Under the pieces are notes generated by a model. It had not been told where the DNA came from, did not search any database, and worked only from the letters and a program-made list of their open reading frames with translations. A stretch of DNA of 37,505 bases from a virus. The number at the start of each line of letters is the position of its first letter. Within the stretch, counting starts at the first letter, position 1. Of this stretch, positions 2,974 through 37,354 are shown piece by piece. The position numbers and the translations under genes are program-made. The stretch lies in IMG/VR virus record IMGVR_UViG_3300015202_000027, positions 1 to 37,505 of that record; one strand, written 5' to 3'.

Positions 2974-2987
2974 GATCGGTACAGCAA
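2974..2987 (+). promoter_or_regulatory. Class A motif (putative phage promoter) upstream of the SSB operon
   Basis: GATCGGTACAGCAA, a full match to the recurring motif. It is placed just after the dnaE stop and 99 bases before the next start codon. The gene start at 3086 has its own Shine-Dalgarno sequence (AGGAG), so the motif is not acting as the ribosome binding site here. Confidence 0.7.
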
Positions 2988-2993
2988 GTTTGT

Positions 2994-3062
2994 AGGGCGG
3001 TGTCGATTGAGGGCAGGAACTCCTTCCCCCAAAAGCCTTTCCAGCACTCTCGATGCCGCCCT
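2994..3062 (+). promoter_or_regulatory. Long stem in the 5' leader of the SSB operon
   Basis: Bases 2994-3006 (AGGGCGGTGTCGA) can pair with 3050-3062 (TCGATGCCGCCCT) in a continuous 13-pair stem containing two G-U pairs, with a 43-base loop. It begins shortly after the class A motif and ends 23 bases before the start codon, leaving the Shine-Dalgarno sequence free. It could stabilise the mRNA or be a regulated leader. Function is inferred only. Confidence 0.5.
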
Positions 3063-3085
3063 CACACATACTCAGGAGAACGAAG

Positions 3086-3580
3086 ATGCAGAAGAAAGTG
3101 ATCATCAATCCAACGAAGGCCGAGGAGGGGACCTACACCCTGCTGGTGCCGGCAGATATTAAACGAGCGCTATTCACTCGTTGTCTCGGTGTCCGCGACG
3201 GGCGCTTGAAGGTTCCATTTTTAATCACCGACACGCACTTGGGTCGCCTCATCTCCAATATCGAATACCGCGTAAAGTCGGTTTCGCGCTGGACGAACAA
3301 AGAAGTGAACAGCTTGGACGAGGCCTGCGAATACCTCGCCAAGGTGGCCGATGAAATCTACGCCGGCGAATTCTGGGACATGAAAGTTCTCAAGGCTGAA
3401 GTTATGTACGGAAAGGACAAAGTGTACGGCTTGGTTTGCCCGGTCGCGGGAAAGGTACAGCAGATTAGACAGACTCTGGAAAGCGTTGCCACCATCGAAG
3501 TGAACGAGTTCAAAGGGGTCAAGAAGGACAACAAATCGCCTGAACAGGCAAAGACGAAAACCGAAAAGGACCCACAATGA
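3086..3580 (+). CDS. Hypothetical protein, first gene of the SSB operon
   Basis: 164 residues, not recognised. I chose the ATG at 3086 because AGGAG lies eight bases upstream; an upstream ATG at 3053 lacks such a site and lies inside the leader stem. The protein is soluble and mixed in charge, with a lysine-rich tail (QAKTKTEKDPQ) that looks disordered. No signal peptide or membrane segment is seen. Its stop overlaps the start of the gp32-like gene (ATGA), so the two are probably translationally coupled, and a role in DNA replication or recombination is a reasonable guess from position only. A GGTACAGCA core occurs inside the gene at 3454. Confidence 0.8.
   Translation: MQKKVIINPTKAEEGTYTLLVPADIKRALFTRCLGVRDGRLKVPFLITDTHLGRLISNIEYRVKSVSRWTNKEVNSLDEACEYLAKVADEIYAGEFWDMKVLKAEVMYGKDKVYGLVCPVAGKVQQIRQTLESVATIEVNEFKGVKKDNKSPEQAKTKTEKDPQ
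3451..3462 (+). promoter_or_regulatory. Weaker class A motif inside the 3086 gene
   Basis: AAAGGTACAGCA contains the full core but lacks the usual ATC ahead of it, and lies about 115 bases before the gp32-like gene. It could be an internal promoter or a chance match within codons for GKVQQ. Confidence 0.3.
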
Positions 3581-4539
3581 GCAATGAAATCGCCCTCAGT
3601 TTTGACCTCGAAGCACTTCTGAACAAAGGTAAGCGCAACCGCAAATACAAGTTCGAATACTTGAAGGACGGCTTGGCCTCTTACCGCATTCTCCCATCGT
3701 TCGATTCGGCTAATCGCCGCTTTGAGCACGGGTACGCGCTCCACTGGTTGACGGGTGAAAACGGCAAACCTGTGAAGGCCCTTTGCACCTACTACACTGA
3801 AAAGTTCTGCCCGGTCTGTCAGGCCCACAAAGCTACCAAAGAGGCTTACGAAGGAGCTGTGAAGGCTGCGCCGCAGGCTGAAAACACCAAGCGTTTGGCC
3901 GCTGCCATGATGAAGCTCAGTGTCGCGCGCTCCACCTTCTACAACGCAGTCAACGCCTCGGGTGAGCCGGTCATCCTTGAGCTGAACAGCACTGTGTCCA
4001 AAGCTCTGGAAGTGCTGATCATTGAGGCCTACCAGAAGAAGAATTTCGATGCGACCGCATTGAAGGGTGGTGTTTGGTTTGACTTCACGAAGAGTGGCAA
4101 GGGCCGTGATTCGGTTCGTGTCGATTACAAGCGCATTTCTCGCCTGGTGGAAGGTGAAATGGTGGACGTTCTTGATCGCACCGGTCTCTCAGAGGAGTTG
4201 ACCAACCGCTTGCCGACCGCTGTTGCCAACCTCCATGACCCGAAGACCATGTGGATCCGAGAGTACACCGCTCTGGAGCTGGGGGACTACCTGAAGGGTA
4301 AGCCTCTTCCAGACACCAATGGTCGTCAAACGGCTGCTGCTCCGACTTCGGAAGAGGATAGCGAAGAGTCTCATGCAGCGGCTCTTCAAGCGATTACCAA
4401 CACAGTCGCAACCCCTCCTAACGCTCAAGCTGCGCCTGCGGCAGTTCAAGCGACTGCGCCGGCGCCTCAGGCAAGTCAGTTCAAGGACTTCGCAGCTGAA
4501 GCAGAACGTCTCCAGAGACTTTCGAACCCACAGGGCTGA
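3577..4539 (+). CDS. gp32-like single-stranded DNA-binding protein
   Basis: 320 residues. It probably coats single-stranded DNA at the replication fork and during recombination, as T4 gp32 does. The N-terminal part has the gp32-like pattern of a short lead-in, a segment of aromatic and basic residues (KFEYLKDGLASYRILPSF) and then a cysteine pair in EKFCPVCQAH near residue 79, which fits the zinc-binding region of such proteins. The middle part is beta-rich and charged. The C-terminal 75 residues are low complexity, rich in Ala, Pro and Gln with a Glu/Asp patch (EEDSEES), comparable to the flexible acidic tail used for partner binding. It overlaps the previous gene by four bases and is followed closely by a possible UvsY-like gene. 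Overall similarity to gp32 is weak at the sequence level. Confidence 0.7.
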   Translation: MSNEIALSFDLEALLNKGKRNRKYKFEYLKDGLASYRILPSFDSANRRFEHGYALHWLTGENGKPVKALCTYYTEKFCPVCQAHKATKEAYEGAVKAAPQAENTKRLAAAMMKLSVARSTFYNAVNASGEPVILELNSTVSKALEVLIIEAYQKKNFDATALKGGVWFDFTKSGKGRDSVRVDYKRISRLVEGEMVDVLDRTGLSEELTNRLPTAVANLHDPKTMWIREYTALELGDYLKGKPLPDTNGRQTAAAPTSEEDSEESHAAALQAITNTVATPPNAQAAPAAVQATAPAPQASQFKDFAAEAERLQRLSNPQG

Positions 4540-4542
4540 GCG

Positions 4543-5088
4543 ATGAACGAGGACTTGAAGAAATTCATTGGGCTGGGTTCCGACGACGAGACCCAGCCCG
4601 TCCTCTACCAGGAGCCCAAAGCAGGCCTCCCGGTCCCGATGGACATGACGGACATCTACAAGTGGGAATCGATGGTGGATCAACTCACCAACATCAACTC
4701 CATCAACGGACCCTACTACATGAGGGAATTCCTGAAGGCGAAAGAGGTTTGCAGCTCCTACTACTGCAAGCTCATCTTCGATCTCGAGCAGGCAAGGAAT
4801 CGGACCAAGACCGAATACGCGTTGTCCTACCTCGAGCGCTCCCAGGAATACATCAAGTTCAAGGGGCTGAAGGATACGGATGAAACCAAGAAGCAATACG
4901 TCCAAATCGACCGCGCCTACCAAGCCGCCAAAGATCATGAGGACATGCTGAAGGCCTTGGCCACCCTTCTTGGCAACAAGGTGGACAAATTTCAGACCGC
5001 TCACGACGACGCTAAGAAGATCTTCGACTCTTCAAGGGATCCGCGAGGCTCCTTGCCTGCGGTGCCGACGTCAAGGGATGCCACATGA
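4543..5088 (+). CDS. Possible UvsY-like recombination mediator
   Basis: 181 residues. It starts three bases after the gp32-like gene and lies upstream of the RecA-like gene, where a mediator that loads recombinase onto SSB-coated DNA would be expected. The protein is mostly predicted helix, with many Lys, Asp and Tyr residues. A central arrangement of a Tyr/Arg-rich helix, then LKDTDETKK, then a long helix (KALATLLGNKVDKF) resembles the general plan of UvsY, but the tail is longer than in T4. No catalytic motif is visible. The assignment rests mainly on context and helix pattern, so it should be read as a hypothesis. Confidence 0.4.
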   Translation: MNEDLKKFIGLGSDDETQPVLYQEPKAGLPVPMDMTDIYKWESMVDQLTNINSINGPYYMREFLKAKEVCSSYYCKLIFDLEQARNRTKTEYALSYLERSQEYIKFKGLKDTDETKKQYVQIDRAYQAAKDHEDMLKALATLLGNKVDKFQTAHDDAKKIFDSSRDPRGSLPAVPTSRDAT

Positions 5089-5650: not shown

Positions 5651-5655
5651 GGCCG

Positions 5656-5668
5656 GATCGGTACAGCA
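5656..5668 (+). promoter_or_regulatory. Class A motif upstream of the recombinase gene
   Basis: GATCGGTACAGCA, perfect over 13 bases, in the gap between 5650 and the recombinase start at 5753. The core ends 84 bases before the start codon, leaving room for a structured leader. Confidence 0.7.
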
Positions 5669-5678
5669 CAGGTGGACG

Positions 5679-5751: not shown

Positions 5752-5752
5752 G

Positions 5753-8295: not shown

Positions 8296-8309
8296 GATCG
8301 GTACAGCAA
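8296..8309 (+). promoter_or_regulatory. Class A motif six bases before the DinG-like gene
   Basis: GATCGGTACAGCAA, with the core ending six bases before the ATG at 8315. The intervening bases (ATTGAG) hold no properly spaced Shine-Dalgarno sequence. The stretch from 8298 to 8325 is nearly identical (26 of 28 bases) to 27179-27206. Confidence 0.75.
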
Positions 8310-8314
8310 TTGAG

Positions 8315-10225: not shown

Positions 10226-10239
10226 AATCGGTACAGCAA
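10226..10239 (+). promoter_or_regulatory. Class A motif six bases before the 10245 gene
   Basis: AATCGGTACAGCAA, core ending six bases before the ATG at 10245. The spacer ACTGTG shows no Shine-Dalgarno sequence. The same ACTGTG follows the motif at 15851. Confidence 0.75.
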
Positions 10240-10244
10240 CTGTG

Positions 10245-10485: not shown

Positions 10486-10507
10486 TCTACGCAGCCAGGT
10501 TTACAAT
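10486..10507 (+). promoter_or_regulatory. Class B motif (putative virion-gene promoter) of block 1
   Basis: TCTACGCA, then 11 bases, then AAT. The same arrangement with the same spacing occurs at 20454 and 31131, ahead of the other two virion blocks. The TTTACAAT at its end resembles a -10 element. The following gene at 10543 has a 35-base leader with a GAGGA ribosome binding site. Confidence 0.6.
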
Positions 10508-10542
10508 TTCCCTAAGCATTCTTGCGTATTGAGGAACTAACG

Positions 10543-15818: not shown

Positions 15819-15824
15819 CCCTAC

Positions 15825-15836
15825 TGCTGTACCGAA
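15825..15836 (-). promoter_or_regulatory. Class A motif on the minus strand
   Basis: Read on the minus strand it is TTCGGTACAGCA, with the core ending six bases before the ATG at 15818. It shows that the motif follows gene direction and not a fixed genome strand. It lies 14 bases from a plus-strand copy, giving a divergent pair. Confidence 0.75.
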
Positions 15837-15850
15837 GCGGCCCGAAAAGG

Positions 15851-15864
15851 AATCGGTACAGCAA
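15851..15864 (+). promoter_or_regulatory. Class A motif seven bases before the zinc-ribbon gene
   Basis: AATCGGTACAGCAA, core ending seven bases before the ATG at 15871. No Shine-Dalgarno sequence lies between. Divergent partner of the copy at 15825. Confidence 0.75.
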
Positions 15865-15870
15865 CTGTGA

Positions 15871-16664: not shown

Positions 16665-17128
16665 ACCGCGACTACAAGATCGAAAAGATTAACGCCTATA
16701 AAAAGCTGATTGAAACGAAGCGCCTGCCCAAGGCTCCGGAAGGGGAGAAGGGTGTTCCACGAGTTGAAGACGAGATTCTGGACGAGTTCTCGACTTGGGC
16801 CAATCTCCAGCTCGCGAAGCTCTTGGGTGAGGAAACCAAGCCCAGTCAAACCATGCTGACGGAAGAGGAGCGAGTGATCCTGAAGGGATTCGCCCAGAAG
16901 CTTATTCAAAAATCGCTGCAGCCAGAAGCTTCCACGCCTACTCAAGTCGCTCGTGCAGCTCCTCAGCCCAATAAAACCCGTCCGGCAGCAAGCGGTACAG
17001 CAATTCAGAGGGAAGAAGAGGAACGGGATCCAGCGATCCCACTCGGAAACCGCCTCAGAAAGCCGAAGTCCGGAACCACCGTTCTGGACGCCCTGGACGA
17101 CCTTGATCGCCAAGGACCAGAGTTTTGA
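16661..17128 (+). CDS. Hypothetical protein
   Basis: 155 residues, not recognised. The N-terminal half is helical and charged. The C-terminal half (from about residue 85) is rich in Ala, Pro, Gln and charged residues and looks disordered, ending in TTVLDALDDLDRQGPEF. It overlaps the ClpP-like gene (ATGA). A class A motif lies inside it at 16992 and could start transcription of the FKBP-like gene. An adaptor for the neighbouring ClpP-like protease is possible, but this is only a guess from position. Confidence 0.7.
   Translation: MNRDYKIEKINAYKKLIETKRLPKAPEGEKGVPRVEDEILDEFSTWANLQLAKLLGEETKPSQTMLTEEERVILKGFAQKLIQKSLQPEASTPTQVARAAPQPNKTRPAASGTAIQREEEERDPAIPLGNRLRKPKSGTTVLDALDDLDRQGPEF
16992..17003 (+). 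promoter_or_regulatory. Class A motif inside the 16661 gene
   Basis: GCGGTACAGCAA, lying about 150 bases before the FKBP-like gene. It differs from the consensus at the ATC ahead of the core. It is within a codon run (SGTAIQ), so a chance origin is possible. Confidence 0.45.
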
Positions 17129-19925: not shown

Positions 19926-20260
19926 TGACGACACGAATTCGCCCTACCCCACAGGAAATTGAGGCGGCGGTCACGGCCATGAGCCAGTTTACGACCGAAG
20001 AAATACAAGAAGAAATCATAGGGTTAGAGGACAACCTCCGCGTCTTATCGGCTGACGGTACAGCAATGATAAGCCTTCGCGAATTCCGAAGGATACGCCA
20101 CGGGTATCAACTCCTGGTGCAAGTCATGAGGATACGTGATGGACGACAGATGCATGAGGAAACTGAAGTGCGTACCGAGCAAGCCTTGTCCGGAAGGGCG
20201 CAAAGCCGTCGACGCCGCCAGGCGCGGCGAGGTAGCCGGCTGTTCCTGGTTTGTAGCTGA
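19925..20260 (+). CDS. Small hypothetical protein
   Basis: 111 residues from the ATG at 19925, overlapping the previous stop by one base. The first 75 residues look like a normal helical acidic-to-basic protein (EEIQEEIIGLEDNLRVL, then LREFRRIRHGYQLLVQV). The last 40 are Arg-rich (RAQSRRRRQARRG) and overlap the 20139 gene in another frame, so this tail may be only an out-of-frame extension. A class A motif lies inside at 20054. Confidence 0.5.
   Translation: MTTRIRPTPQEIEAAVTAMSQFTTEEIQEEIIGLEDNLRVLSADGTAMISLREFRRIRHGYQLLVQVMRIRDGRQMHEETEVRTEQALSGRAQSRRRRQARRGSRLFLVCS
20054..20065 (+). promoter_or_regulatory. Class A motif inside the 19925 gene
   Basis: GACGGTACAGCA, with an in-frame ATG directly after the core at 20066 and the next gene about 75 bases further on. 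Either an internal start of the 19925 frame or a promoter for the 20139 gene. Confidence 0.5.
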
Positions 20261-23993: not shown

Positions 23994-24025
23994 GGCCCCA
24001 CTGGGAAACCAGTGGGGCCTTTTTT
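23994..24025 (+). terminator. Intrinsic terminator of the capsid operon
   Basis: A perfect 11-base-pair stem (GGCCCCACTGG / CCAGTGGGGCC) with a GAAA tetraloop, followed by six T residues. It ends virion block 2. It is not a strong terminator on the minus strand because no T-run follows in that direction. Confidence 0.95.
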
Positions 24026-24127: not shown

Positions 24128-24562
24128 TTACTGGCCGGTGCTACCAAAACCACCGATACCTCTAGTGCTCTCCTCAAGGTAATCCACGACTTCGATGTCG
24201 GCTTGGACGATGGGACAGACGACACCCTGGGCGATTCGATCGCCCATTTTAATATTCACCCCCGGGCTCCTTGGATCGGAGTTCCACGCAATTACACACA
24301 CCTCTCCCCGGTAGTCCGCATCCACGGTGCCAGGGGAATTAGCTACGCGCAAAGAGGTCTTCAAAGAGAGCCCCGAACGAGGGCGAACTTGAATTTCATA
24401 CCCTGGCCCGACGTCGAAGGCCAAGCCGGTGCGTACCAGTTTTGTTTCACCCGGCTGAATGGTGACATCTTCCAGGGCGTGCAAATCGAAGCCACTCGCG
24501 CCAGGAGTTTCATATCTAGGGATAACTGCGTTTTCATGGAGTCGCTTGATCTTAAGCTTCAT
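24128..24562 (-). CDS. dut: dUTPase (deoxyuridine triphosphatase)
   Basis: 144 residues, the usual length for a trimeric dUTPase. It hydrolyses dUTP to dUMP, keeping uracil out of phage DNA and supplying dTMP synthesis. All five motifs are present: GASGFDL, RPRSGLS, GTVDADYRGE, GDRIAQ and RGIGGFGSTG at the C-terminus. The ATG at 24562 lies five bases after a minus-strand class A core. It is a single-gene unit lying between two plus-strand operons. The open frame on the opposite strand is a shadow. Confidence 0.95.
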   Translation of the reverse strand: MKLKIKRLHENAVIPRYETPGASGFDLHALEDVTIQPGETKLVRTGLAFDVGPGYEIQVRPRSGLSLKTSLRVANSPGTVDADYRGEVCVIAWNSDPRSPGVNIKMGDRIAQGVVCPIVQADIEVVDYLEESTRGIGGFGSTGQ

Positions 24563-24567
24563 GAAGA

Positions 24568-24579
24568 TGCTGTACCGAA
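24568..24579 (-). promoter_or_regulatory. Class A motif on the minus strand, before dut
   Basis: Read on the minus strand: TTCGGTACAGCA, core ending five bases before the dut ATG. No Shine-Dalgarno sequence in the spacer (TCTTC). The second minus-strand copy. Confidence 0.75.
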
Positions 24580-24593
24580 CAGAGGACACAGCC

Positions 24594-24960: not shown

Positions 24961-24974
24961 GATAGGTACAGCAA
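24961..24974 (+). promoter_or_regulatory. Class A motif upstream of the DnaB-like gene
   Basis: GATAGGTACAGCAA, one change from the consensus, with 23 bases to the ATG at 24997. A short leader hairpin follows. Confidence 0.7.
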
Positions 24975-24975
24975 C

Positions 24976-24994
24976 GGTGGGAGGCAAACCCACC
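24976..24994 (+). promoter_or_regulatory. Hairpin between class A motif and DnaB-like start
   Basis: GGTGGG-AGGCAAA-CCCACC, a perfect six-pair stem starting three bases after the class A core and ending two bases before the ATG. Its 5' side and loop include the GGGAGG Shine-Dalgarno-like bases, so it may weaken initiation. Confidence 0.4.
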
Positions 24995-24996
24995 AG

Positions 24997-26460
24997 ATGT
25001 CCAAGACCCAAAAATCGATGAAGTATCCGGATGATTTTCAGCGCGCAATCTTGCGCCTGATGATGACCGATCCGATCTTCTGTTCAAAGGCGTGTGATCA
25101 GCTCCAGTCTACCCACTTCAGCCGCGAGCTGAGTTGGTTCTTTGCCACCATCAAGTCCTATGGTGGAACTCCTCCGTCTCGTTCAGCTGTGTCCGCTGAC
25201 ATCTATAAGCATGACGATAAAAAGTGGGACGCCTTCGAAAAGGTTTTGGATCAGATCTGCAATGAACCCGTGGACGCCTTGGTGGTTAAGAAAATCCACC
25301 TTGAGATGACCCAGTTCATTCGGGCCAACATTTTCGTCGATTCCTGCCTGGAAGCAGCCAGTTTGTACAATGCGGACAAGCTCGACGAAGCCTACAAACT
25401 TGTCACGAAGCGCATGACCGATCTTAACCGGGTCAACTTCGGTTCAGACGGTAATACGCGCTTTGGGGACGTCCTGGAACTCGTGCAGCGTTCGGCCGCA
25501 GAGCACGCCAATGCCATCCCCACAGGCCTTCACGAGATCGACTTGGCCCTGGGCGGTGGATTGACACCTGGTACTTGGACCACATTCCTGGGTGCCTCGA
25601 ACGCCGGAAAATCAATGGTGATGCCCACCCTGGCCCATCAAGCTGCGCTGAAAGGCAAAAGGGTTTTCGTTACGATTCATGAGGACGAAGAGATCCCTAC
25701 TAAAATCAGGTACCTCTCAGCCTTCTCGGGCATTGAGTATACGCGGATTGCTTACGGCTTCGCGTTCCTGAGCGAAGCTGAAAAGCAGCAAGTGATCGAC
25801 GCCGACATTTTCCTTCAGAAGCACGTCGTGATGCGCTTCATGTACACGAACGAGTCAACCATCGAGAACGTTTTCGCCAAGTGTAAGGAGTTGATGACCG
25901 AATGGCCATACCATCTCTACCTGTGTGACTACGGTCAATGTCTCACCTCCCACGACTTCAAAAAGATGGATTCGGTGAGACATCTTCAAGAGCACGTCTA
26001 CCACATGATGAAGCAGCTCTGCCTTGAGCTGAACATTGCCGGTGCTGGCGGTGCCCAAGTCAATAGGGCTGGATCGTCCAAGAACGCATCCGGAGTCGAT
26101 TGGCTGAGGAAGGAGGACGTCGCGGAAGCGTGGGGAATCGTCACGAAGTCCACCAACGTCATCACGATGAACCGGTCTACTTCGGACGTTCTCAGTAATC
26201 GAATCGTCATGCTCCTGGATAAGTCTCGCCATGGTCGCTGCCCAGTCGCTGTTGACTGTGAATCCGACTACTCTCGGTCGACCGTCTATAAGTCCATCAA
26301 TCAGGAGGACAAGACTCATCTGATCGAGAAGGGTCCTTCTAATCGCGTGACTGGTCACGATGATGAAAAGAAGAAGAAAAAGATGGAACTCGTCAATCCT
26401 GCTGATGATGTCCGCGCCGACCCTCCAAAGGGAAATCGAGGATCGGTACAGCAAGGGTGA
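24997..26460 (+). CDS. DnaB-like replicative DNA helicase
   Basis: 487 residues. A hexameric helicase driving the replication fork. The N-terminal 170 residues are helical and charged, as in the primase-interacting domain. The RecA-like motor follows, with IPTGLHEIDLALGGGLTPG leading into Walker A GASNAGKS at 199-206, Walker B LYLCDYGQ near 311-318, and the later GGAQVNRAG loop typical of DnaB and T4 gp41. The C-terminus is charged and Lys-rich. It lies under its own class A motif, away from the polymerase, but all belong to the same motif class. A primase was not found in the window. Confidence 0.9.
   Translation: MSKTQKSMKYPDDFQRAILRLMMTDPIFCSKACDQLQSTHFSRELSWFFATIKSYGGTPPSRSAVSADIYKHDDKKWDAFEKVLDQICNEPVDALVVKKIHLEMTQFIRANIFVDSCLEAASLYNADKLDEAYKLVTKRMTDLNRVNFGSDGNTRFGDVLELVQRSAAEHANAIPTGLHEIDLALGGGLTPGTWTTFLGASNAGKSMVMPTLAHQAALKGKRVFVTIHEDEEIPTKIRYLSAFSGIEYTRIAYGFAFLSEAEKQQVIDADIFLQKHVVMRFMYTNESTIENVFAKCKELMTEWPYHLYLCDYGQCLTSHDFKKMDSVRHLQEHVYHMMKQLCLELNIAGAGGAQVNRAGSSKNASGVDWLRKEDVAEAWGIVTKSTNVITMNRSTSDVLSNRIVMLLDKSRHGRCPVAVDCESDYSRSTVYKSINQEDKTHLIEKGPSNRVTGHDDEKKKKKMELVNPADDVRADPPKGNRGSVQQG
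26441..26454 (+). promoter_or_regulatory. Class A motif at the end of the DnaB-like gene
   Basis: GATCGGTACAGCAA, overlapping the last codons of the helicase gene (RGSVQQG). The next ATG at 26463 is nine bases after the core; a GTG at 26457 is three bases after it. Confidence 0.7.
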
Positions 26461-26723: not shown

Positions 26724-27249
26724 CCGAGAGATCGAGCGTAAGTTTGTAGTGACAGGTAAGAGCCTGATTGAGGTGTCAAACGCCGTCGCCAAGTCTCTTC
26801 GCAGAGAATTCCGAGAGCTTGTCACCGATGAATCGAGCGACATCTACTGGAAGGCTGGCCGTGGAGCGAAAGCCGACTTCATTCGCCTTCGGATGATGCC
26901 AGATGGAACAGGGCAGCTCACCGTCAAATGGACCGACCGTGGATCCACCACAAACCGAATCGAGATCGACGTGGTGGTGCCGGATCCCGTGCAGTGCCAG
27001 AAGTTTCTCACCCAGGTCCACGGAAAGCCCGAGGGCTCCATCTCCAAAGAGTATCACGTCTACTTGATCGACAAGATGGACACGAACGTCTCCGTCTATC
27101 AAGTCGATGGCGACAAACGAGTGTTTCTAGAAGTGGAAGCGAGGACTCTCGAACGGGTCAGTCGCCTCTGCAAGCAAGTCGGTACAGCAATTAAGATGGA
27201 ACGCGAGAAGCGCTCCCTCTATCAAATCTTCGTCAAAGGGCAGGTGTAA
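26710..27249 (+). CDS. CYTH-domain protein (triphosphate tunnel enzyme family)
   Basis: 179 residues, the usual size of a CYTH domain. The N-terminal EIERKF is the ExExK signature that binds metal and triphosphate, and IRLR with TVKW and FLEVEA fit the later tunnel strands. Members act as thiamine triphosphatases, polyphosphatases, RNA triphosphatases or class IV adenylate cyclases. Here it could act on a nucleotide or polyphosphate during infection, but the substrate cannot be read from sequence. GGAG lies seven bases before the ATG. The class A motif at 27178 lies inside its last codons. Confidence 0.75.
   Translation: MGHANREIERKFVVTGKSLIEVSNAVAKSLRREFRELVTDESSDIYWKAGRGAKADFIRLRMMPDGTGQLTVKWTDRGSTTNRIEIDVVVPDPVQCQKFLTQVHGKPEGSISKEYHVYLIDKMDTNVSVYQVDGDKRVFLEVEARTLERVSRLCKQVGTAIKMEREKRSLYQIFVKGQV
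27178..27190 (+). promoter_or_regulatory. Class A motif inside the end of the CYTH gene
   Basis: GTCGGTACAGCAA. From 27179 to 27206 the sequence is 26 of 28 bases identical to 8298-8325, including an ATG six bases after the core. That ATG is in the CYTH frame and would make only a 17-residue peptide. Possibly a promoter for the 27252 gene. Confidence 0.6.
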
Positions 27250-28196: not shown

Positions 28197-28197
28197 G

Positions 28198-28210
28198 ACA
28201 GGTACAGCAA
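28198..28210 (+). promoter_or_regulatory. Class A motif five bases before the SbcC-like gene
   Basis: ACAGGTACAGCAA, core ending five bases before the ATG at 28215. The spacer ACCGT contains no Shine-Dalgarno sequence. Confidence 0.75.
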
Positions 28211-28214
28211 CCGT

Positions 28215-30263
28215 ATGAGGATCCTCTCGGTTTCAGCCACAAACTTCAGATCCTACTCGAGTCTCAATATCGACTTCCCGACCTCGGGACTTGTACTGAT
28301 TGATGGCCAAAATATAGACACCGGTCGCTCGAACATGACGGGCAAAACTACGATGCTCGACGCCGTATTTTGGGCGCTTTATGGCTACCTTCCCAAGTGG
28401 GGAGGTCCAAAGGGCGGATCCGCCGATGCAGTCATCAAGCGCGGCACCAAGCACTGCGTGGTTTGCGTCTCCGTCGAGCATGGCGGAGACATCTATCAGA
28501 TCGTCCGCCGGAGGCCGACTTGCTTGTCCGTCGTCAAGAACCAGGGCGATATCCCCGGCAAGAAGAATGACCTCGATACCCGCATCCCTGAATTGATCGG
28601 AATGACGGCGGATCAATTTCTTCTGTCTGTCTACATCTCCCAGGACCGCACCACCTCCTTCTTCACCATGACCGACATCGAGCGCACCAAGCTCCTGTCT
28701 ACGATTGCTGGCCTGGAAAGTCTCAACAAAGCCCTCGATAAGGCCAAAGGTATTCGCGATGACGTTCAAATCAAAATCAAGGTCGAGCAAGGCGCCATCG
28801 GGGCAATCGAAGGGCACCTTGCCCGGTTCCCCTCCGAAAGGGCGTCCCTGCAAGCCGAAGCGGAGCCCATCGAGCGTCTCCTTGCTGCCTCACACGAGCG
28901 TCTTGCTTTGGCTACTCGAGAGGCGGCTGAACGTCACCGTGTCGCTGAAGGTGGTGCCGTCCAGCAAATTGCCAGCGTCGATGCGGACATCAAAGCGACC
29001 CTGGAGAGATTGAGCCAGGAGTTTACGGCCGCGTCCTATGAGAAGGGCATCAAAATCCAAGACCTCTTGCGCTCTCCCAAGCTCGACCCATCCTACAGTG
29101 TCGCTGTTGCTCAGGCCCAAGCCTCCCTCGAGGCCGCCCAAGAGCTGAATCTGCAGCGAGCCAAGCAAGGCGTCACCAACGCTCAGGCCAGGGCCGCCCT
29201 CTCCCAAATTGCTGAGAAGCTGAAGAGTGGGACTGGACTGGCGGGCTTTTGCGAGGAGTGCGACCAAGCGTTACCCGTCGAGGACCGTGAGGCCCAGATG
29301 CATAAGCTCCTCGACAAGGCGACCTATTGGGAGGGTTTACTCAAGCCCGAAGAGCCCCAAGCGCACCTCACACCTCTCAAAGAGGCCCTTTCGTCAGCCC
29401 AAATGGCCCTGGCCCAGATGAATGCACAGCTTGCGGCCAAGCCCGACCAACTCCGAGTTGAGGTGCGCGCTCTTGAGACTCGCCTGGTCCAGATCAAACG
29501 CGAGGCTGAACTGGAGGAAGCCAACTCCCGTTCCAAGAAGATCTCCATCCAGAGTGTGGCCGATGGGATCAATCGATCCGCCAACGACGGCATCATCGCC
29601 GTCCAGAGAGAACTCGATCTCCTCACTTCAAAGCGAGTCCAAGTTGAATCAGCCCTGAAGGGGATTACCCAGCGTGAGTGTCAGGTGGCAGGCGACCTCG
29701 AGCAAAACAAGGCCAAGCTTTCTGTCCTCCTTGTTCAGTTGGATGAGGCGCTCGATCTGATTGATCTCTTTGGACCCAAAGGCTTTCGAGCGGTATGTTT
29801 TGACGGCATCATCGAGCGTATCTCGGATAGGGCCGGAGAGCTTCTCTCCCTGATGACCGATAACGTCTACGCCACCCGAATCGAGCAGTGTGCTGAGAAT
29901 TCGAAAGGGGAGGACAAGGTGGTCCTTCGCCCTGTCATCACTAAAGGGGGCCTTGAGGTTCCTTTGGACGATCTCTCGGGTGGGGCCCGGAAGATGGCCA
30001 TGCTCGCTTACGATGTGGCCGTGTCTGAGTCGGTGGGGGATAGCTCGATTCTGTTCCTCGATGAAGCCTTGGACGGTTTAGACGCCCAAGGGAAGGGGGA
30101 AGCTATGCGACTCCTTGAGGAAGTGGCTCGTCACCGAGCCGTGCTCTTGATTGACCATACGAGCGAGATCCGGGCTGCTTGCCAGTCCGTTATCCAGGTG
30201 AAGTACAAAGACGGCACTTCGTTCATCGAAGGCCCTACCATCCCTGAGGAAGCGGCCCAATGA
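28215..30263 (+). CDS. sbcC: SbcC/Rad50-like ATPase (T4 gp46-like)
   Basis: 682 residues. An ABC-type ATPase that, with the Mre11/SbcD-like protein at 6887, binds and opens DNA ends for nuclease action. The N-terminus has the family pattern MRILSVSATNFRSY. Walker A is spread over residues 31-45 (GQNIDT...MTGKT), as in phage gp46 proteins where extra residues precede GKT. Long coiled-coil arms follow, joined at a zinc-hook CEEC at residues 346-349. The C-terminal lobe has the ABC signature LSGGARKMA and the Walker B region ILFLDEALDGLD. Its length is close to T4 gp46, shorter than bacterial SbcC. Confidence 0.92.
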   Translation: MRILSVSATNFRSYSSLNIDFPTSGLVLIDGQNIDTGRSNMTGKTTMLDAVFWALYGYLPKWGGPKGGSADAVIKRGTKHCVVCVSVEHGGDIYQIVRRRPTCLSVVKNQGDIPGKKNDLDTRIPELIGMTADQFLLSVYISQDRTTSFFTMTDIERTKLLSTIAGLESLNKALDKAKGIRDDVQIKIKVEQGAIGAIEGHLARFPSERASLQAEAEPIERLLAASHERLALATREAAERHRVAEGGAVQQIASVDADIKATLERLSQEFTAASYEKGIKIQDLLRSPKLDPSYSVAVAQAQASLEAAQELNLQRAKQGVTNAQARAALSQIAEKLKSGTGLAGFCEECDQALPVEDREAQMHKLLDKATYWEGLLKPEEPQAHLTPLKEALSSAQMALAQMNAQLAAKPDQLRVEVRALETRLVQIKREAELEEANSRSKKISIQSVADGINRSANDGIIAVQRELDLLTSKRVQVESALKGITQRECQVAGDLEQNKAKLSVLLVQLDEALDLIDLFGPKGFRAVCFDGIIERISDRAGELLSLMTDNVYATRIEQCAENSKGEDKVVLRPVITKGGLEVPLDDLSGGARKMAMLAYDVAVSESVGDSSILFLDEALDGLDAQGKGEAMRLLEEVARHRAVLLIDHTSEIRAACQSVIQVKYKDGTSFIEGPTIPEEAAQ

Positions 30264-31228: not shown

Positions 31229-31459
31229 ATGGCCGGCAAACAGAAGTTCCCCCACATCGAAATCGTCGCGATCTGGATCTCCAACCAAGATAACGGCGTC
31301 AAGATCGGCAAAAAGCGATTCGCCGACGTCCTCGGAGTCTCTGAGCGCACCGTGCGCCGTGCCCTGAAGCAAGCCGAGATAGCGGGCCTAGTCCCTCCCG
31401 GCACCATCAAAGACACGCCTGTTCAACTCAAGGGCAAGGGGTACAATTCCAATGACTAA
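31229..31459 (+). CDS. Small helix-turn-helix protein
   Basis: 76 residues. The segment GKKRFADVLGVSERTVRRALKQ is a clear helix-turn-helix, with the basic recognition helix at its end. As first gene of the terminase operon it may be a DNA-recognition part of the small terminase or a regulator of this operon. Its stop overlaps the next start. A regulator that binds the nearby inverted repeats is an attractive but unproven idea. Confidence 0.65.
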   Translation: MAGKQKFPHIEIVAIWISNQDNGVKIGKKRFADVLGVSERTVRRALKQAEIAGLVPPGTIKDTPVQLKGKGYNSND

Positions 31460-32057
31460 TCTTCCCGTCGGAGTCCACTCGGGTCTCACGCCCGATCAGA
31501 TCGCGCTCGCCCACAACTATGTAGGGCATTTGAACATCCACTACCTCTCCCGGGCCAGGCAGCTCTTCATGGGTGGATTGACCTGCGAGGAGATCGTAGG
31601 CAAGTACCCGGAGTACACGCTCCCGATGCTCTATCGGGCATGCCTCGAATACGACTGGACCCAGGCTAGACTCGTCGAGGCCCAGCGGTTGGCAACCATT
31701 GCCATTTCGTCGGCAGGGATAGGTCAGCCCAAAGCACTCATCTTCATGAACCGCATGATCGAGGCCGTGTACGCACGGTACGAGAAGAAGCTGCTCGATT
31801 TCATCACTGATCCCGACAACGCCCCTTACCCGCAAGTTTCCAAGGCCGATTTCGACCAGATCGGGCGATCGCTCGAGTACGCACGAGAGATGCTCGGAAT
31901 GAACGCCAAGGCTGCGCAAGGCGGCGGCAATTCGGGTGGGAACCTCATCCACATCACGATGAAGGGCGCCCCAGCTGAAAGCATCGATATTTCGACTGCC
32001 AAGGTCGAGGACATCGTGTCCCGCCTAGAAGGGAAGTACGGCAAGGACGTGAAGTAG
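31452..32057 (+). CDS. Possible small terminase subunit
   Basis: 201 residues. It lies directly before the large terminase gene and starts inside the HTH gene. The N-terminal part is helical (GLTPDQIALAHNYVG, then LTCEEIVGKYPEYTLPMLYRACLEY) and could be a DNA-binding helix-turn-helix, the middle is a long helix, and the C-terminal 50 residues are Gly/Ser/Ala-rich then charged. This plan fits small terminases, which recognise packaging sites, but no specific family is recognised. Confidence 0.5.
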   Translation: MTNLPVGVHSGLTPDQIALAHNYVGHLNIHYLSRARQLFMGGLTCEEIVGKYPEYTLPMLYRACLEYDWTQARLVEAQRLATIAISSAGIGQPKALIFMNRMIEAVYARYEKKLLDFITDPDNAPYPQVSKADFDQIGRSLEYAREMLGMNAKAAQGGGNSGGNLIHITMKGAPAESIDISTAKVEDIVSRLEGKYGKDVK

Positions 32058-32058
32058 T

Positions 32059-35000
32059 ATGGCTGACCAAGCCCACACGGATGTCGAACTCCTTGAGGAG
32101 TTGATGGCTCCTCTCACTTCAAAGCGTCACCTCCAACTCTGGCTGAAGGGGCACCTTGGCTTCACGCTGCCTGATCAATCGGTCACGAAGTTTGCCAACT
32201 CCAATCCCCTCGATTTCGTGTGGATGGTGTACCGGGCCATCATGGACGGAAAGCCCTTAAGAATCATGGCGTTGAGCGGCCGAGACAGCGGGAAGACTGT
32301 CGCGCTCTCGGTCATCGATCTCTTGGCCATGCTCCACGACCAGCGCTCAGCCCTTCACTCCGCCATGACGAGTGCCCAGGCCACACGCGCCAGGGACTAC
32401 CTCCAGAGCTACCTGCTGAAGAACCCGATCCTGAGATCCTCGATCGTGACGGAGAACCAGAAGCTGATTGAGCTTCGGGTGGGCGGCGAGAAGGTGGGAC
32501 TGGAATTGATCTCGCTCACGCCTAAGGCCGTCCAAGGCGCCCACTACAGTCTGGTCTCCACCGACGAGCTGGCCTCGTCCATGGACCCCCAGCAGATCAA
32601 GGCCTATCGAGATTTGTCCGGGGTGGCCGGATCGCACAAGCTGAGTGGGAAGCCCGCCGTCATCGTGAAGATCACCTCACGCCAGTCGGGTGCATCCTTG
32701 GCTGAGCAAGAGCTGAAGAATGCCCACAAGACGGGCATTGTTGTGGTCAATTGGACCACGATCGATTGCATGAAGGCGTGCCCGCCCGAGAGATCGGGAA
32801 CGGTCGTGTCCCCGATGAACATCAACGTCATCAAAGGCCTGGCCTTCAACGACGAAGAGTTCGTCCGCATGAAGGACAAGGACGGCTTTGACCGTACCGA
32901 GGATACCCGCGACGGATGCCTGAAGTGCCCACTCCTTCACTACTGCCAGGGTAGGGCCCGCTTCCAAACGAGCGAGAGTGCCCTTCTGAGAGAGATCGAC
33001 GACGTCATCACCAAGGTGAACGACGCCAACTCCCACGAATGGGTGTTGTCGCAGCTCCTCTCGCAACAGGCCTCAAGCGATGGCCTCGTCTACCCTGAGT
33101 TCAACCCCACCATCCACATTCCAGGTTGGGACGTGATGTGGGAGAAGCTGACCGGTGAGCCTCCTCTCAATCCCGTCAACCGCGAGATGTTCATTCGGGA
33201 GCTGAAGCGCCGGGGTGCTACGTTCATTGCCGGTGTCGATTGGGGCTATACGGCACCTGCCACTTGCGTCGTTTTGGCGATCGACGACCGCGACAACATC
33301 TTTGTGGTCGAAGCGACCGGCCGAGTGAGATACGACGATCCGGAATGGGTGGAAGTGATCAAGACCCAGATCCATCCCAAGTATGACGTTCAAATGTACT
33401 TGCCCGACGCCGAGAATCCATCGGGGATCAGCCTCTTGAGGAAGGCCGATCTACCCGTAGCCGAGATCGATAAGGGCCCAGGCTCAGTGAAAGCGGGCGT
33501 GAACATCGTGAAGGGACTCCTCAAGATCCCAGGCACGAATAACCGGGCCCGGATCTACTTCGCGCCCGACATCAAGCCCACGGCCACCGACATCCCAGGG
33601 ATCCTGGAAGAGTTTGGCCTCTATGCCAAAGAGATCGATGCCGCTGGCCAAGTGCAAGACGACAAGTACCGGAAGGGCAACGACCACTACTGTGTAGCCC
33701 CACATACGATGATCACGACGAAGTCAGGCGCTAAGCCTATTTCTCAGATCGTCGTGGGCGATGAGGTCTTGACTCACTCGGGCCGTTATAAATCGGTTAC
33801 GCGCGTAATGGTCAATCCTCATCAGGGGCCGATCAAACGCCTAGGCGTCACCGGACGCGAAGACCTTCTGATCACGGGTAACCACCCGATCTTGACCTGC
33901 TCGAGTCGCAGGAGTTTCGAGGATGGCAACACCGGACAAATGATGGTGAATCAGGACTTTACCTGGACTAAACCCGAGGACATTCAGCTTCAGGCGCGAA
34001 AGACGGCGCCCCGGACGTTGGTGCAGACGGTACGCACGCTTGAGACCGATTCGGTCGTAATTGACATGAAAGAGCTACTTCCGGATTACCTGGAAGAAGG
34101 GAATCTCTTGGTGGCTGGCTGTACTGGGCGAGACGGCGTAGTTAGGGTCAATCCCAAGGCGCGCCCCATTGAGCGTTATCAGCGGGTGGATGAAGATCTG
34201 GCGTTCACCATCGGGTACTTTGCCGCTGAGGGTTCAAAGTCGGGTAACCCATCCAAGAACAAGTACGGGGTCAACTTTACCGGGCATAATCGTGAAAAGA
34301 CGGTCGAAGATCTAATCAAGAACGTGGCAGCGCGCTTTGGAGCAAAAGCTTCGTTTCGTAGCGTCGTGGGCAATGCGCGTCACGTGCGATTCAATAGCAA
34401 GGCCTTGTACAAGCTTATGGAAGGTTGCTCGAGCCGTACCGAGAAACGCTTCCCCGATTATGCAACCCAGCTTGAGCGGCCAGAGATGCTCACGATGGTA
34501 GCCGGCTATATGTTTGGAGACGCACACTTTTCCAGTCATGGCATCAAAGCTGGCACTATCTCAAGAGAGCTTGCCTACCAATTGTTCACGATGCTCGTCA
34601 CGCTGGGCTACCGGCCCAACATCAAGCGGGCACATCGGGCTGGACGCTGGGGAGTAAAGAACGATCAATGGATCGTTTCTCTCTGCAGGGACCAGGGTCA
34701 GGCGCTTCTGATCGAGATCTGCAAGGAGCCTAGGTTGAATGAGATCTTTAAGGAGAAGCTCGTCAACCTCGGGTACTCAAAAATCAAGGCCGGCTGCTCA
34801 TTCAAAAACGGGACCTTCGTTTCAAGCATCGTTCGCAAGGTTTCCGAGGAGGCCTACGATGGTTTGGTCTACAACCTCGAGGTTGAGGGTGAGCACTCCT
34901 ACGTTGCAAATGGGATCGTAGTCCATAATTGCGATGCTCTCCGGTACGCGCTCTATTGGTATTACGGCAAAGCCGTGTTCCAGGCCGTGTTCGCCAATAG

Positions 35001-35220
35001 TGCCTACACCCAGAAATCGCATGCGCCCGATAAGATTTCACCGAAGACCACCGAACTTGCCGAGATGGCCGGCGTGAACGTCCAAGACAACCGCTCAGAC
35101 TTCCCTCAGCTCTTCATGAAGCAGGAGGAGTACGACGAGAACGGGAACCCCGTGAAGCCCGACGACGATACTGACCCGACCGGAACCGGCGGGGGCGGGC
35201 TCCAAGTCGCGTGGACGTGA
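32059..35220 (+). CDS. Terminase large subunit with intein
   Basis: 1053 residues, of which 640 are terminase. It packages DNA by ATP hydrolysis and cuts it with a C-terminal nuclease. Walker A is SGRDSGKT at residues 73-80 and Walker B is LVSTDE near 165-170. The RNase H-like nuclease has Asp 394 in AGVDWGYT, Asp 450 in LPDAENPSG and Asp 959 in CDALRYALY. An intein occupies residues 545-957 and separates YRKGNDHY from CDALRY, so it disrupts the last catalytic Asp region until removed. Five cysteines between residues 237 and 296 (CMKAC and CLKCPLLHYC) may bind zinc. The gene starts one base after the preceding stop. Confidence 0.9.
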   Translation: MADQAHTDVELLEELMAPLTSKRHLQLWLKGHLGFTLPDQSVTKFANSNPLDFVWMVYRAIMDGKPLRIMALSGRDSGKTVALSVIDLLAMLHDQRSALHSAMTSAQATRARDYLQSYLLKNPILRSSIVTENQKLIELRVGGEKVGLELISLTPKAVQGAHYSLVSTDELASSMDPQQIKAYRDLSGVAGSHKLSGKPAVIVKITSRQSGASLAEQELKNAHKTGIVVVNWTTIDCMKACPPERSGTVVSPMNINVIKGLAFNDEEFVRMKDKDGFDRTEDTRDGCLKCPLLHYCQGRARFQTSESALLREIDDVITKVNDANSHEWVLSQLLSQQASSDGLVYPEFNPTIHIPGWDVMWEKLTGEPPLNPVNREMFIRELKRRGATFIAGVDWGYTAPATCVVLAIDDRDNIFVVEATGRVRYDDPEWVEVIKTQIHPKYDVQMYLPDAENPSGISLLRKADLPVAEIDKGPGSVKAGVNIVKGLLKIPGTNNRARIYFAPDIKPTATDIPGILEEFGLYAKEIDAAGQVQDDKYRKGNDHYCVAPHTMITTKSGAKPISQIVVGDEVLTHSGRYKSVTRVMVNPHQGPIKRLGVTGREDLLITGNHPILTCSSRRSFEDGNTGQMMVNQDFTWTKPEDIQLQARKTAPRTLVQTVRTLETDSVVIDMKELLPDYLEEGNLLVAGCTGRDGVVRVNPKARPIERYQRVDEDLAFTIGYFAAEGSKSGNPSKNKYGVNFTGHNREKTVEDLIKNVAARFGAKASFRSVVGNARHVRFNSKALYKLMEGCSSRTEKRFPDYATQLERPEMLTMVAGYMFGDAHFSSHGIKAGTISRELAYQLFTMLVTLGYRPNIKRAHRAGRWGVKNDQWIVSLCRDQGQALLIEICKEPRLNEIFKEKLVNLGYSKIKAGCSFKNGTFVSSIVRKVSEEAYDGLVYNLEVEGEHSYVANGIVVHNCDALRYALYWYYGKAVFQAVFANSAYTQKSHAPDKISPKTTELAEMAGVNVQDNRSDFPQLFMKQEEYDENGNPVKPDDDTDPTGTGGGGLQVAWT
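33691..34929 (+). mobile_element. Intein with LAGLIDADG homing endonuclease in the large terminase
   Basis: 413 residues, in frame with the terminase. It starts at Cys (CVAPHTMITT), the A-block pattern, and ends in EGEHSYVANGIVVHN, with His-Asn before the +1 Cys of the host protein: a complete set for self-splicing. The B-block is GNHPI. Two LAGLIDADG-like segments, IGYFAAEGS near intein residue 173 and VAGYMFGDAH near 270, indicate a homing endonuclease about 100 residues apart as usual. The insertion site is at the nuclease active site of the terminase, a typical highly conserved home for inteins. Confidence 0.9.
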
Positions 35221-35767: not shown

Positions 35768-35781
35768 AATCAGTACAGCAA
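35768..35781 (+). promoter_or_regulatory. Class A motif with one core change, before the 35786 gene
   Basis: AATCAGTACAGCAA, with one base changed in the core (AGTACAGCA), and the GTG start five bases after it. Confidence 0.65.
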
Positions 35782-35785
35782 TAGC

Positions 35786-36097
35786 GTGAAGATCGTCCAC
35801 GATAGCTCAGAGCAGAAGCAGATGATCGCCATGGAGTGGTTCCCACTTCCCGTGATGAAGCACCGCGAGCACCGGTTTCTTTACCGCTTCACTTACCCAA
35901 TCACCACGATCTGGATGGAAGGATTGATCACTGGACCAGGCTATGGTGATCCCGAGCACCTGGGCGGTTCCATGGACAATCGGCTTGAGCGGTTTGCGTG
36001 CGAGAACTGGGACAGGCTCTGTGTGGAGTGGGATGTGCCCGACCTAAAACCTGCTCTCATGGCGTCCGTTCTCGAGTGCAAGATGGTGCGGAAGTAG
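35786..36097 (+). CDS. Small hypothetical protein
   Basis: 103 residues, GTG start five bases after a class A core, with no Shine-Dalgarno sequence. Aromatic-rich (AMEWFPLPVMKHREHRFLYRF, FACENWDRLCVEW). No family recognised. Followed 30 bases later by another class A motif, so it is probably a single-gene unit. Confidence 0.65.
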   Translation: MKIVHDSSEQKQMIAMEWFPLPVMKHREHRFLYRFTYPITTIWMEGLITGPGYGDPEHLGGSMDNRLERFACENWDRLCVEWDVPDLKPALMASVLECKMVRK

Positions 36098-36127
36098 GAG
36101 CTGGACGACCCGGTCTCCATGGAATCG

Positions 36128-36140
36128 AACCGGTACAGCA
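36128..36140 (+). promoter_or_regulatory. Class A motif five bases before a small interrupted gene
   Basis: AACCGGTACAGCA, core ending five bases before an ATG at 36146. The frame stops after 12 codons. Confidence 0.65.
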
Positions 36141-36145
36141 CTGTC

Positions 36146-36273
36146 ATGACAAACACCGACACCGCTCCCTCTTCCAGTTGCTGACCCATTTCGTTGATGT
36201 GAATGGGGTCCTCGACGTCATCAATGCGAGTGACAACAATCCACCCGAAGACTCGATTGTCATCAAGGACTGA
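36146..36273 (+). pseudogene. Small gene, apparently frameshifted
   Basis: The ATG at 36146 is placed as expected after a class A core but gives only MTNTDTAPSSSC before a stop. The next frame contains a protein-like stretch (SLFQLLTHFVDVNG, ending in PPEDSIVIKD) to a stop at 36273. Joining the two would give about 43 residues. Either a frameshift mutation, a sequencing error, a programmed shift or two very short peptides. Confidence 0.4.
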
Positions 36274-36286
36274 GTGCGGGCTCACA

Positions 36287-36604: not shown

Positions 36605-36620
36605 CCGGTGTGTCGAAAGT

Positions 36621-36633
36621 GACAGGTACAGCA
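36621..36633 (+). promoter_or_regulatory. Class A motif upstream of the PA14-like lipoprotein gene
   Basis: GACAGGTACAGCA, 56 bases before the ATG at 36690. Here the gene has a leader and an AGGAG ribosome binding site eight bases before the ATG. Confidence 0.65.
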
Positions 36634-36689
36634 CCAGTGCAGGGCGAAACGAACCCGCCAAACAAGTTTCAAAACCAGGAGTAATCCCA

Positions 36690-37259
36690 ATGTTTAAGAA
36701 CCTCTCGACTCTAGGCCTGATCGCCCTCAGCGTTTCTGCTTGCGGATCCAAGGAAGTTGTCTTCAATCAGCCCTCGGCATCAGACGCTCCCGCAGCATCG
36801 ATCCCAGCCCTGGTCCAGAAGGCTGTCACCTGCCAAGTGTACGACCTGGGCTACTACCCAAGCGCCCTGCCTGACTTCGACAACCTCACTCCCGCTGTGA
36901 CCGTGGGACTCGACAAGTTCTCGCTCGGCATCGCAACCGACGTCGCTCCCTTCCCGGCTTTGATCGGCACTGCGGCCGAGAACTACAAGACTCGTGTAGC
37001 CTACCGCTGCACCGGCACCTTGAAGGTGACCCAGGCCGGCCTCCACATCATCAAGACCGTGAGCGATGACGGTGTGCGGGTCACGATCGGTGGATTGAAG
37101 GTGATCGAGAACAACACTTCTCACGGCGCTACTGCAAACTCAGTCACCCTGAGCCTTTCTGCCGGCAACTACAGCATGGTGGTTGAGTACTTCGAAGGCG
37201 ACGGCCCAAAAGAGCTTCTCGTCACCGACCAGCCTGCTCCAACCGCTCTCAACATCTAA
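36690..37259 (+). CDS. PA14-like domain lipoprotein
   Basis: 189 residues. The first 17 form a lipoprotein signal peptide with lipobox SVSAC (Cys 18 acylated), so it should be anchored in the host envelope or carried on the outside. The mature part has a beta-rich fold with GLHIIKTVSDDGVRVTIGG and SAGNYSMVVEYFEG, the PA14 domain pattern of sugar- or surface-binding proteins. A phage-encoded surface lipoprotein may block superinfection or change adhesion. It has its own class A motif and a likely terminator after it. Confidence 0.75.
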   Translation: MFKNLSTLGLIALSVSACGSKEVVFNQPSASDAPAASIPALVQKAVTCQVYDLGYYPSALPDFDNLTPAVTVGLDKFSLGIATDVAPFPALIGTAAENYKTRVAYRCTGTLKVTQAGLHIIKTVSDDGVRVTIGGLKVIENNTSHGATANSVTLSLSAGNYSMVVEYFEGDGPKELLVTDQPAPTALNI

Positions 37260-37283
37260 AAGTCCCCCGTCCCATGCAAGTGA

Positions 37284-37316
37284 GGGTCGGCTCCCAAAAG
37301 GGGTCGGCCCTTTCTT
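37284..37316 (+). terminator. Probable terminator of the lipoprotein gene
   Basis: An 11-pair stem (GGGTCGGCTCC with GGGGTCGGCCC, three of the pairs G-U) around a short A-rich loop, followed by TTTCTT. It starts 25 bases after the stop codon. Confidence 0.55.
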
Positions 37317-37340
37317 GCGTCTGGGCGTGCGGGCGAATGA

Positions 37341-37354
37341 GATCGGTACAGCAA
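37341..37354 (+). promoter_or_regulatory. Class A motif before the last, partial gene
   Basis: GATCGGTACAGCAA, core ending seven bases before the ATG at 37361. AAGGAG is present in the spacer but too close to the ATG to be well spaced. Confidence 0.7.

What the first reader, a model, noticed from the sequence alone, without database searches (positions are those of the whole stretch)
2974..37354. A recurring directional motif (GATCGGTACAGCAA) marks gene starts across the window
I count 17 GGTACAGCA cores in 37.5 kb on both strands, plus one with a single change (35768). A nine-base word would be expected about 0.3 times by chance in this length. Thirteen of the 18 sites lie between genes or at a gene end, and at ten a start codon follows 5-9 bases after the core. 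Both minus-strand copies (15825, 24568) point into minus-strand genes. This is the behaviour of a promoter specific to the phage, perhaps for a phage RNA polymerase or sigma factor encoded elsewhere. No -35 or -10 pair of the sigma70 kind is evident.
Basis: partly seen in the sequence, partly recalled or inferred. Interest (0 to 1): 0.88.

Follow-up and report, generated by a model that had tools for sequence, protein, structure and literature searches.

The report
Phage-specific single-box promoter, partly leaderless
A short DNA word repeated 18 times in this phage fragment is most likely the phage's own promoter box: relatives carry an ordinary bacterial -10 box with the same layout, but this phage has a changed version that an ordinary host sigma factor should read poorly, and it often starts messages at the first codon.

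Summary
In detail: 17 exact GGTACAGCA plus one AGTACAGCA (0.09 expected), 16 on the + strand and 2 on the -, each followed by a gene on the same strand. If that is +1, the invariant octamer GTACAGCA lies at -13 to -6, where a bacterial -10 box or the T4 late box sits; there is no -35 conservation. At 10 of 18 sites the start codon lies 0-4 nt after this +1, predicting leaderless mRNAs; the rest have 18-148 nt leaders. Related phages from IMG/VR carry GTATAATA in the same layout (one directly before a phage tmRNA), and the closest (61.7 kb) has intermediates CGGTAYAAYA, two of them before genes that carry the box here. The window lacks GTATAATA and has one TATAAT. Best reading: a single-box promoter class that diverged from a -10 box and lost its key T(-7), so probably read by host RNA polymerase with a phage-specific specificity factor. 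That factor was not found; the window is a fragment, and searches for gp55, T7-type and multisubunit polymerases gave nothing. No expression data exist.

The parts
2974..2992 (+). promoter box GATCGGTACAGCAA, predicted +1 at 2992 (G); 94-nt leader to gene 3086 (operon with SSB 3577)
   Evidence: PWM 26.0 bits
3450..3468 (+). box inside ORF 3086-3580 (frame GTA CAG CA), predicted +1 3468; 109 nt to SSB start 3577
5656..5674 (+). box, predicted +1 5674; 79 nt to UvsX/RecA-like gene 5753. Nearest relative G007 has AATCGGTACAATAG before its recA
8296..8314 (+). box, predicted +1 8314; ATG of helicase gene at 8315 (1-nt leader)
10226..10244 (+). box, predicted +1 10244; ATG 10245 (1-nt leader)
15819..15837 (-). 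divergent box, predicted +1 15819; ATG 15818 of a minus-strand 106-aa signal-peptide-like gene (15498-15818)
15851..15869 (+). divergent partner box, predicted +1 15869; ATG 15871 (2-nt leader)
16990..17008 (+). box inside ORF 16661-17128 (frame GGT ACA GCA), predicted +1 17008; 139-148 nt to gene 17147/17156
20053..20071 (+). box in ORF 19925-20152, predicted +1 20071; 68 nt to conserved gene 20139. G007 has CGGTATAACA before the ortholog
24562..24580 (-). box, predicted +1 24562 = A of the ATG of dUTPase (24128-24562): leaderless
24961..24979 (+). box, predicted +1 24979; 18 nt with GGGAGG to DnaB-like helicase ATG 24997; lies downstream of the terminator at 23994-24019
26441..26459 (+). box overlapping the 3' end of dnaB (frame GTA CAG CAA), predicted +1 26459; ATG 26463 (4-nt leader)
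27177..27195 (+). box inside the CYTH-domain gene, predicted +1 27195; 57 nt to gene 27252
28197..28215 (+). box, predicted +1 28215 = A of the SbcC-like gene ATG: leaderless
35768..35786 (+). box with one change (AGTACAGCA), predicted +1 35786 = G of the GTG start: leaderless
36128..36146 (+). box, predicted +1 36146 = A of an ATG opening only 12 codons; next gene 36287
36621..36639 (+). box, predicted +1 36639; 51 nt (AGGAG) to PA14-domain gene 36690
37341..37359 (+). box, predicted +1 37359; ATG 37361 (2-nt leader), gene runs off the window
23994..24019 (.). strong bidirectional terminator-like hairpin after the major capsid gene; the box at 24961 is the next one downstream on the + strand

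Best explanation
The motif is this phage's own promoter class: a near-invariant single box, GTACAGCA with the preferred context GATCG...A, at -13 to -6 from a purine +1, with no -35 element. It descends from an ordinary -10 box (GTATAATA) that related phages use in the same layout. The change of T(-7) to C, plus C(-10) and G(-8), fixed at all 18 sites, implies a changed reader: most likely host multisubunit RNA polymerase with a phage-encoded or phage-modified sigma-like factor, comparable to T4 gp55. At 10 sites the start codon is 0-4 nt from +1, so those genes would make leaderless or nearly leaderless mRNAs; the others have leaders of 18-148 nt. The genes served include replication and recombination genes (SSB, RecA/UvsX-like, helicases, SbcC, dUTPase) and small genes. 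Shown: motif, statistics, register, comparison. Inferred: +1, promoter activity, direction of evolution, the factor.
For: Excess: 17 against 0.09; bimodal PWM. Fixed +1 purine 18/18 and no conservation at -35. Leaders of 0-4 nt at 10/18, P about 5e-11 against a uniform 0-150 nt spread. Both minus-strand copies and the divergent pair 15819-15869 point into their own genes. Relatives: 30 distinct intergenic GTATAATA with A/G at +1 in 25/30 and an RTG exactly at +1 in 9/30; in G001, 10 of 11 are intergenic with 13% noncoding DNA, and one has its +1 at L145:10435, 2 nt before the tmRNA 5' end at 10433. G009: TANNNT at -12..-7 before 12 of 123 starts against 1.45 at other spacings. Nearest relative G007: CGGTA[CT]A[AG][CT]A 3 times, all intergenic and at most 20 nt before genes, 0.28 expected; two precede orthologs of window genes that carry the box (recA, 20139). 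The window has no GTATAATA, one TATAAT, and fewer sigma70-like promoters than shuffles. T4 late box: 8 bp at -13..-6, no -35, tightly conserved; Aeh1 shows a drifted box with a diverged gp55 (PMC2988020, PMC1524935).
Against: No transcript data. No sigma, gp55 or RNA polymerase gene in the window or in 10 related records (some weak sub-threshold hits), though the window is a fragment. GTACAGCA and GTATAATA share only 5 of 8 positions, so the kinship rests on register and the few G007 intermediates. No relative carrying GTACAGCA boxes was found. Five boxes lie wholly or partly inside genes, though each is followed by a gene start within about 150 nt. Some leader lengths depend on start-codon choice.
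Confidence: 0.78

Rival explanations
1. The boxes are promoters of a single-subunit, T7-type phage RNA polymerase encoded outside the window.
For: Compact, near-invariant motif of about 19 bp, a purine +1, and purine-rich +2 to +6 resemble T7-type promoters (own knowledge).
Against: No PF00940 in window or relatives, with T7 as positive control; the same register as GTATAATA in relatives and the G007 intermediates point to -10 recognition.
Confidence: 0.1
2. The boxes are asymmetric binding sites of a phage repressor that stops transcription (stoperators), as in Cluster A mycobacteriophages.
For: Stoperators are short, asymmetric, spread over the genome and mostly in one orientation relative to transcription (PMC6550527).
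Against: Does not explain the fixed purine 13 nt downstream (18/18), start codons clustering at that base, or the related -10 boxes in the same layout in relatives.
Confidence: 0.05
3. The motif acts in RNA as a translation-start signal or translational operator, like the start-associated sequences of Cluster K mycobacteriophages.
For: At about half the sites it lies immediately upstream of a start codon, and many of these starts lack a Shine-Dalgarno sequence.
Against: Eight sites are 18-148 nt from the start and several of those leaders have their own purine-rich SD-like sequence; the motif does not resemble SD, whereas GGGATAGGAGCCC (SAS) contains AGGAG.
Confidence: 0.04
4. The host's own sigma factor, unusual in specificity, reads these boxes and no phage factor is involved.
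For: The host is unknown; other phages of this group have GTATAATA or TANNNT boxes that a normal sigma would read.
Against: T(-7) of the -10 element is one of its two most critical bases (own knowledge) and is absent at all 18 sites; 18/18 invariance is tighter than usual for host sigma promoters.
Confidence: 0.15

Closest known systems
T4 late promoters (gp55/gp33/gp45)
   Same: one 8-bp box at -13..-6, no -35 element, tightly conserved multiple copies on both strands, box sequence drifting between related phages (Aeh1 CTAAATA)
   Different: box sequence (GTACAGCA against TATAAATA), no gp55 homolog found, boxes serve replication genes and often leaderless starts
-10 (TANNNT) boxes of leaderless genes, e.g. 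Deinococcus-Thermus (PMC12340547)
   Same: box a few nt upstream of the ORF, giving leaderless mRNA; related phages here have exactly this
   Different: T(-7) replaced by C at every site; invariant octamer
SPO1 middle promoters (gp28 sigma; own knowledge)
   Same: large phage with a related major capsid, and a phage-specific promoter class that includes replication genes
   Different: SPO1 promoters have -35 and -10 boxes of other sequence; no gp28 homolog identified here
T7-type phage promoters
   Same: compact, near-invariant, purine start
   Different: no single-subunit RNA polymerase found; -10 register shared with GTATAATA of relatives
Cluster K SAS and Cluster A stoperators
   Same: repeated, asymmetric, directional, near gene starts
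   Different: no SD-like core; fixed +1 purine; kinship with -10 boxes

Membership tests
T4-type late promoter | single box at -13..-6 relative to the start | tested here: inconclusive
   octamer at -13..-6 of a purine fixed in 18/18; the start itself is inferred
T4-type late promoter | no conserved -35 element | tested here: met
   no conserved column around -35
T4-type late promoter | box TATAAATA | tested here: not met
   GTACAGCA at all 18 sites
T4-type late promoter | gp55 homolog present | tested here: inconclusive
   phrog_234 absent from window and 10 relatives, T4 control positive; window is a fragment
T4-type late promoter | dependence on gp33 and the sliding clamp | not testable with these tools
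   needs biochemistry
sigma70 / TANNNT -10 promoter | T-12, A-11 and T-7 | tested here: not met
   T-12 and A-11 18/18, but C-7 18/18
sigma70 / TANNNT -10 promoter | -10 box adjacent to leaderless starts in the same phage group | tested here: met
   relatives: RTG at +1 in 9/30 GTATAATA sites; G009 12/123 TANNNT
T7-type phage promoter | single-subunit RNA polymerase encoded by the phage | tested here: inconclusive
   none in window or relatives, T7 control positive; window incomplete
multisubunit phage RNA polymerase (phiKZ/AR9 type) | beta-subunit homolog | tested here: inconclusive
   PF00562 absent from window and relatives; window incomplete
stoperator | asymmetric sites in one orientation relative to transcription | tested here: met
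   all 18 point with the downstream gene
stoperator | cognate immunity repressor | not tested
   no repressor recognised in the proteins scanned, but no dedicated search was made
start-associated sequence (SAS) | SD-containing core directly before start codons | tested here: not met
   no SD-like core; 8 of 18 sites lie 18-148 nt from the start (SAS as in PMC3203893)

The most novel reading that the evidence does not exclude
The phage encodes a sigma-like specificity factor of an undescribed family that reads a T(-7)-less single box and drives leaderless replication genes. The phage group would then show, in syntenic promoters, how a host -10 box (GTATAATA) was converted stepwise (CGGTAYAAYA) into a private promoter (CGGTACAGCA).
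Probability: 0.35. Interest if true: 0.72.

Novelty: new variant of a known kind. Interest (0 to 1): 0.55.

Why it matters
If right, this is a clear natural series, within one phage group, of promoter boxes moving from one the host can read to a phage-private sequence while start position and gene context stay the same. That makes the evolution of promoter specificity, and the identity of the phage factor that follows it, directly testable. It also shows a large phage using leaderless mRNAs for replication genes, and gives a marker for finding the rest of this genome in metagenomes.

Tried and rejected
Megablast of the first 25 kb against phage records: no match. Exact motif scans of IMG/VR gave mostly single chance matches; of the loci none held more than 3 cores. 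Portal query: no relatives found. Capsid profile against bacterial genomes: none, so the host stays unknown. A RecA profile scan added two contigs without the box; the TAAGGGTAT repeat in L187 lies mostly inside genes and is not promoter-like. De novo EM in the relatives was swamped by start codons, so register-based counts were used instead. Sigma70-pair scan of the window: no excess. Weak PF04545 and TIGR02937 hits are below cut-off; the window one falls in a small terminase-small-subunit-like HTH protein. GTACAGCA in G009 (7 copies) shows no clear start association. sigma54 and ECF promoters were rejected on spacing and the lack of an upstream box.

Full report
Observation. GGTACAGCA occurs 17 times in 37.5 kb, 15 on + and 2 on -, against 0.09 in dinucleotide shuffles; an 18th copy, AGTACAGCA, lies in the site at 35768. 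It is the top over-represented 8/9-mer of the window, and a PWM separates 18 sites (16.9-28.1 bits) from everything else (at most 11.0). 13 of 18 are outside gene models.

Anatomy. The 18 sites align to GATCGGTACAGCAAnnnnR. GTACAGCA is invariant; A-17 and C-15 are 14/18; +1 is a purine in 18/18 (G 14, A 4), also at the sites with no start codon nearby. There is no conserved column around -35. With this +1, the predicted leaders are 0, 0, 0, 0, 1, 1, 1, 2, 2 and 4 nt at ten sites and 18 to 148 nt at eight; ten or more within 0-4 nt has P about 5e-11 under a uniform 0-150 nt spread (which entered 3 nt for the last site where the sequence gives 2; the count is unaffected). Sites within coding sequence use two reading frames (GTA CAG CA; GGT ACA GCA), so selection is not on protein.

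Surroundings. The window is an IMG/VR record of a phage with an SPO1-type major capsid, DNA polymerase, UvsX/RecA-like recombinase, DnaB-like helicase, SbcC/SbcD, dUTPase and an intein-bearing terminase. Boxes precede the SSB operon, recA, helicase, dnaB, sbcC, dUTPase and several small genes. A strong terminator-like hairpin follows the capsid gene (23994-24019), and the next + strand box (24961) then leads dnaB. A divergent pair (15819-15869) opens genes on both strands.

Relatives. Profile and protein searches gave ten related records; most share gene order with the window. None has a set of GTACAGCA boxes. Instead G001, G002, G004, G005, G007 and G008 carry GTATAATA, mostly intergenic. Over 30 distinct intergenic sites, the base at the same +1 is A/G in 25, and an RTG codon lies exactly at +1 in 9. 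In G001 one box puts its +1 2 nt before a tmRNA, an independent sign that these are promoters. G001 also has a divergent pair (5268/5314). G009 shows TANNNT at -12..-7 before 12 of 123 starts, 1.45 at other spacings, often with an upstream TG. So single -10 boxes close to start codons are common in this group.

Intermediates. The nearest relative, G007 (TerL 73%, capsid 60%, RecA 61%), has CGGTATAATA, CGGTACAATA and CGGTATAACA, all intergenic and at most 20 nt before genes, 0.28 expected. Two precede orthologs of window genes that carry the window box (recA, 20139). At recA, G007 has AATCGGTACAATAG where the window has GATCGGTACAGCAC, with dissimilar flanks. Thus GTATAATA, CGGTAYAAYA and CGGTACAGCA form a plausible series; its direction is inferred.

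Mechanism. T(-7) and A(-11) are the key bases of a -10 element (own knowledge); the window box keeps T-12, A-11 and A-9 but has C-7 throughout. An invariant octamer at -13..-6 without a -35 is the layout of T4 late promoters, read by gp55 on host polymerase; Aeh1 shows that such boxes drift together with gp55 (PMC2988020, PMC1524935). I therefore favour host polymerase with a phage-specific sigma-like factor. No such factor was found: phrog_234, PF04542, PF04545, TIGR02937, PF00940 and PF00562 gave nothing above cut-off in the window or relatives; T4 and T7 controls were positive for gp55 and PF00940. The window is a fragment (relatives reach 157 kb), so this is not proof of absence. Window operons without the box may use sigma70-like boxes (TTTACAAT near 10500; GTAAAATA at 19585), which would make two promoter classes.

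Rivals. A T7-type polymerase, stoperators, translational signals and an unusual host sigma are weighed in the Rival explanations section. The +1 purine, the clustering of start codons at it and the relatives' boxes in the same register favour a -10-type promoter over the first three; the unusual-host-sigma reading is not excluded.

Verdict. A new variant of a known kind (phage-specific single-box promoters). Promoter function is likely but unproven; the factor that reads the box is unknown.

Noticed in passing
window 32059-35220: Terminase large subunit gene of 1053 aa contains an intein with splicing and LAGLIDADG domains.
   Followed up: partly
window 31452-35220 against relatives G001, G002, G005, G007: The terminase genes sit about 20 kb away from their position in relatives (between gene 7839 and gene 10543), a rearrangement of an otherwise conserved gene order.
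   Followed up: partly
L145:10024-10433 (G001): Phage-encoded tmRNA (RF00023) plus several tRNAs in a relative; its promoter box puts +1 2 nt before the tmRNA 5' end.
   Followed up: yes
window 15019-15498 (-) and 36690-37259: A probable lipoprotein with HEIGHCFGLEH (metzincin-like zinc motif) and a PA14-domain protein with a lipoprotein-like N terminus.
   Followed up: no
window 26710-27249: CYTH-domain protein (triphosphate tunnel family) in the replication region, with orthologs in G007 and G009.
   Followed up: no
window 10490-10510 and 19585: Possible ordinary -10 boxes (TTTACAAT; GTAAAATA) at the head of box-free genes, suggesting a second promoter class.
   Followed up: partly
L148-L154 (G004): G004 is full of dispersed 10-12 bp words (ATACCCATCCAG, GGTCCCCAGAAA, 7-10 copies each) unrelated to the box.
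   Followed up: no
window 36146-36184: One box leads exactly to an ATG that opens only 12 codons: either a tiny gene or a frameshifted one.
   Followed up: no
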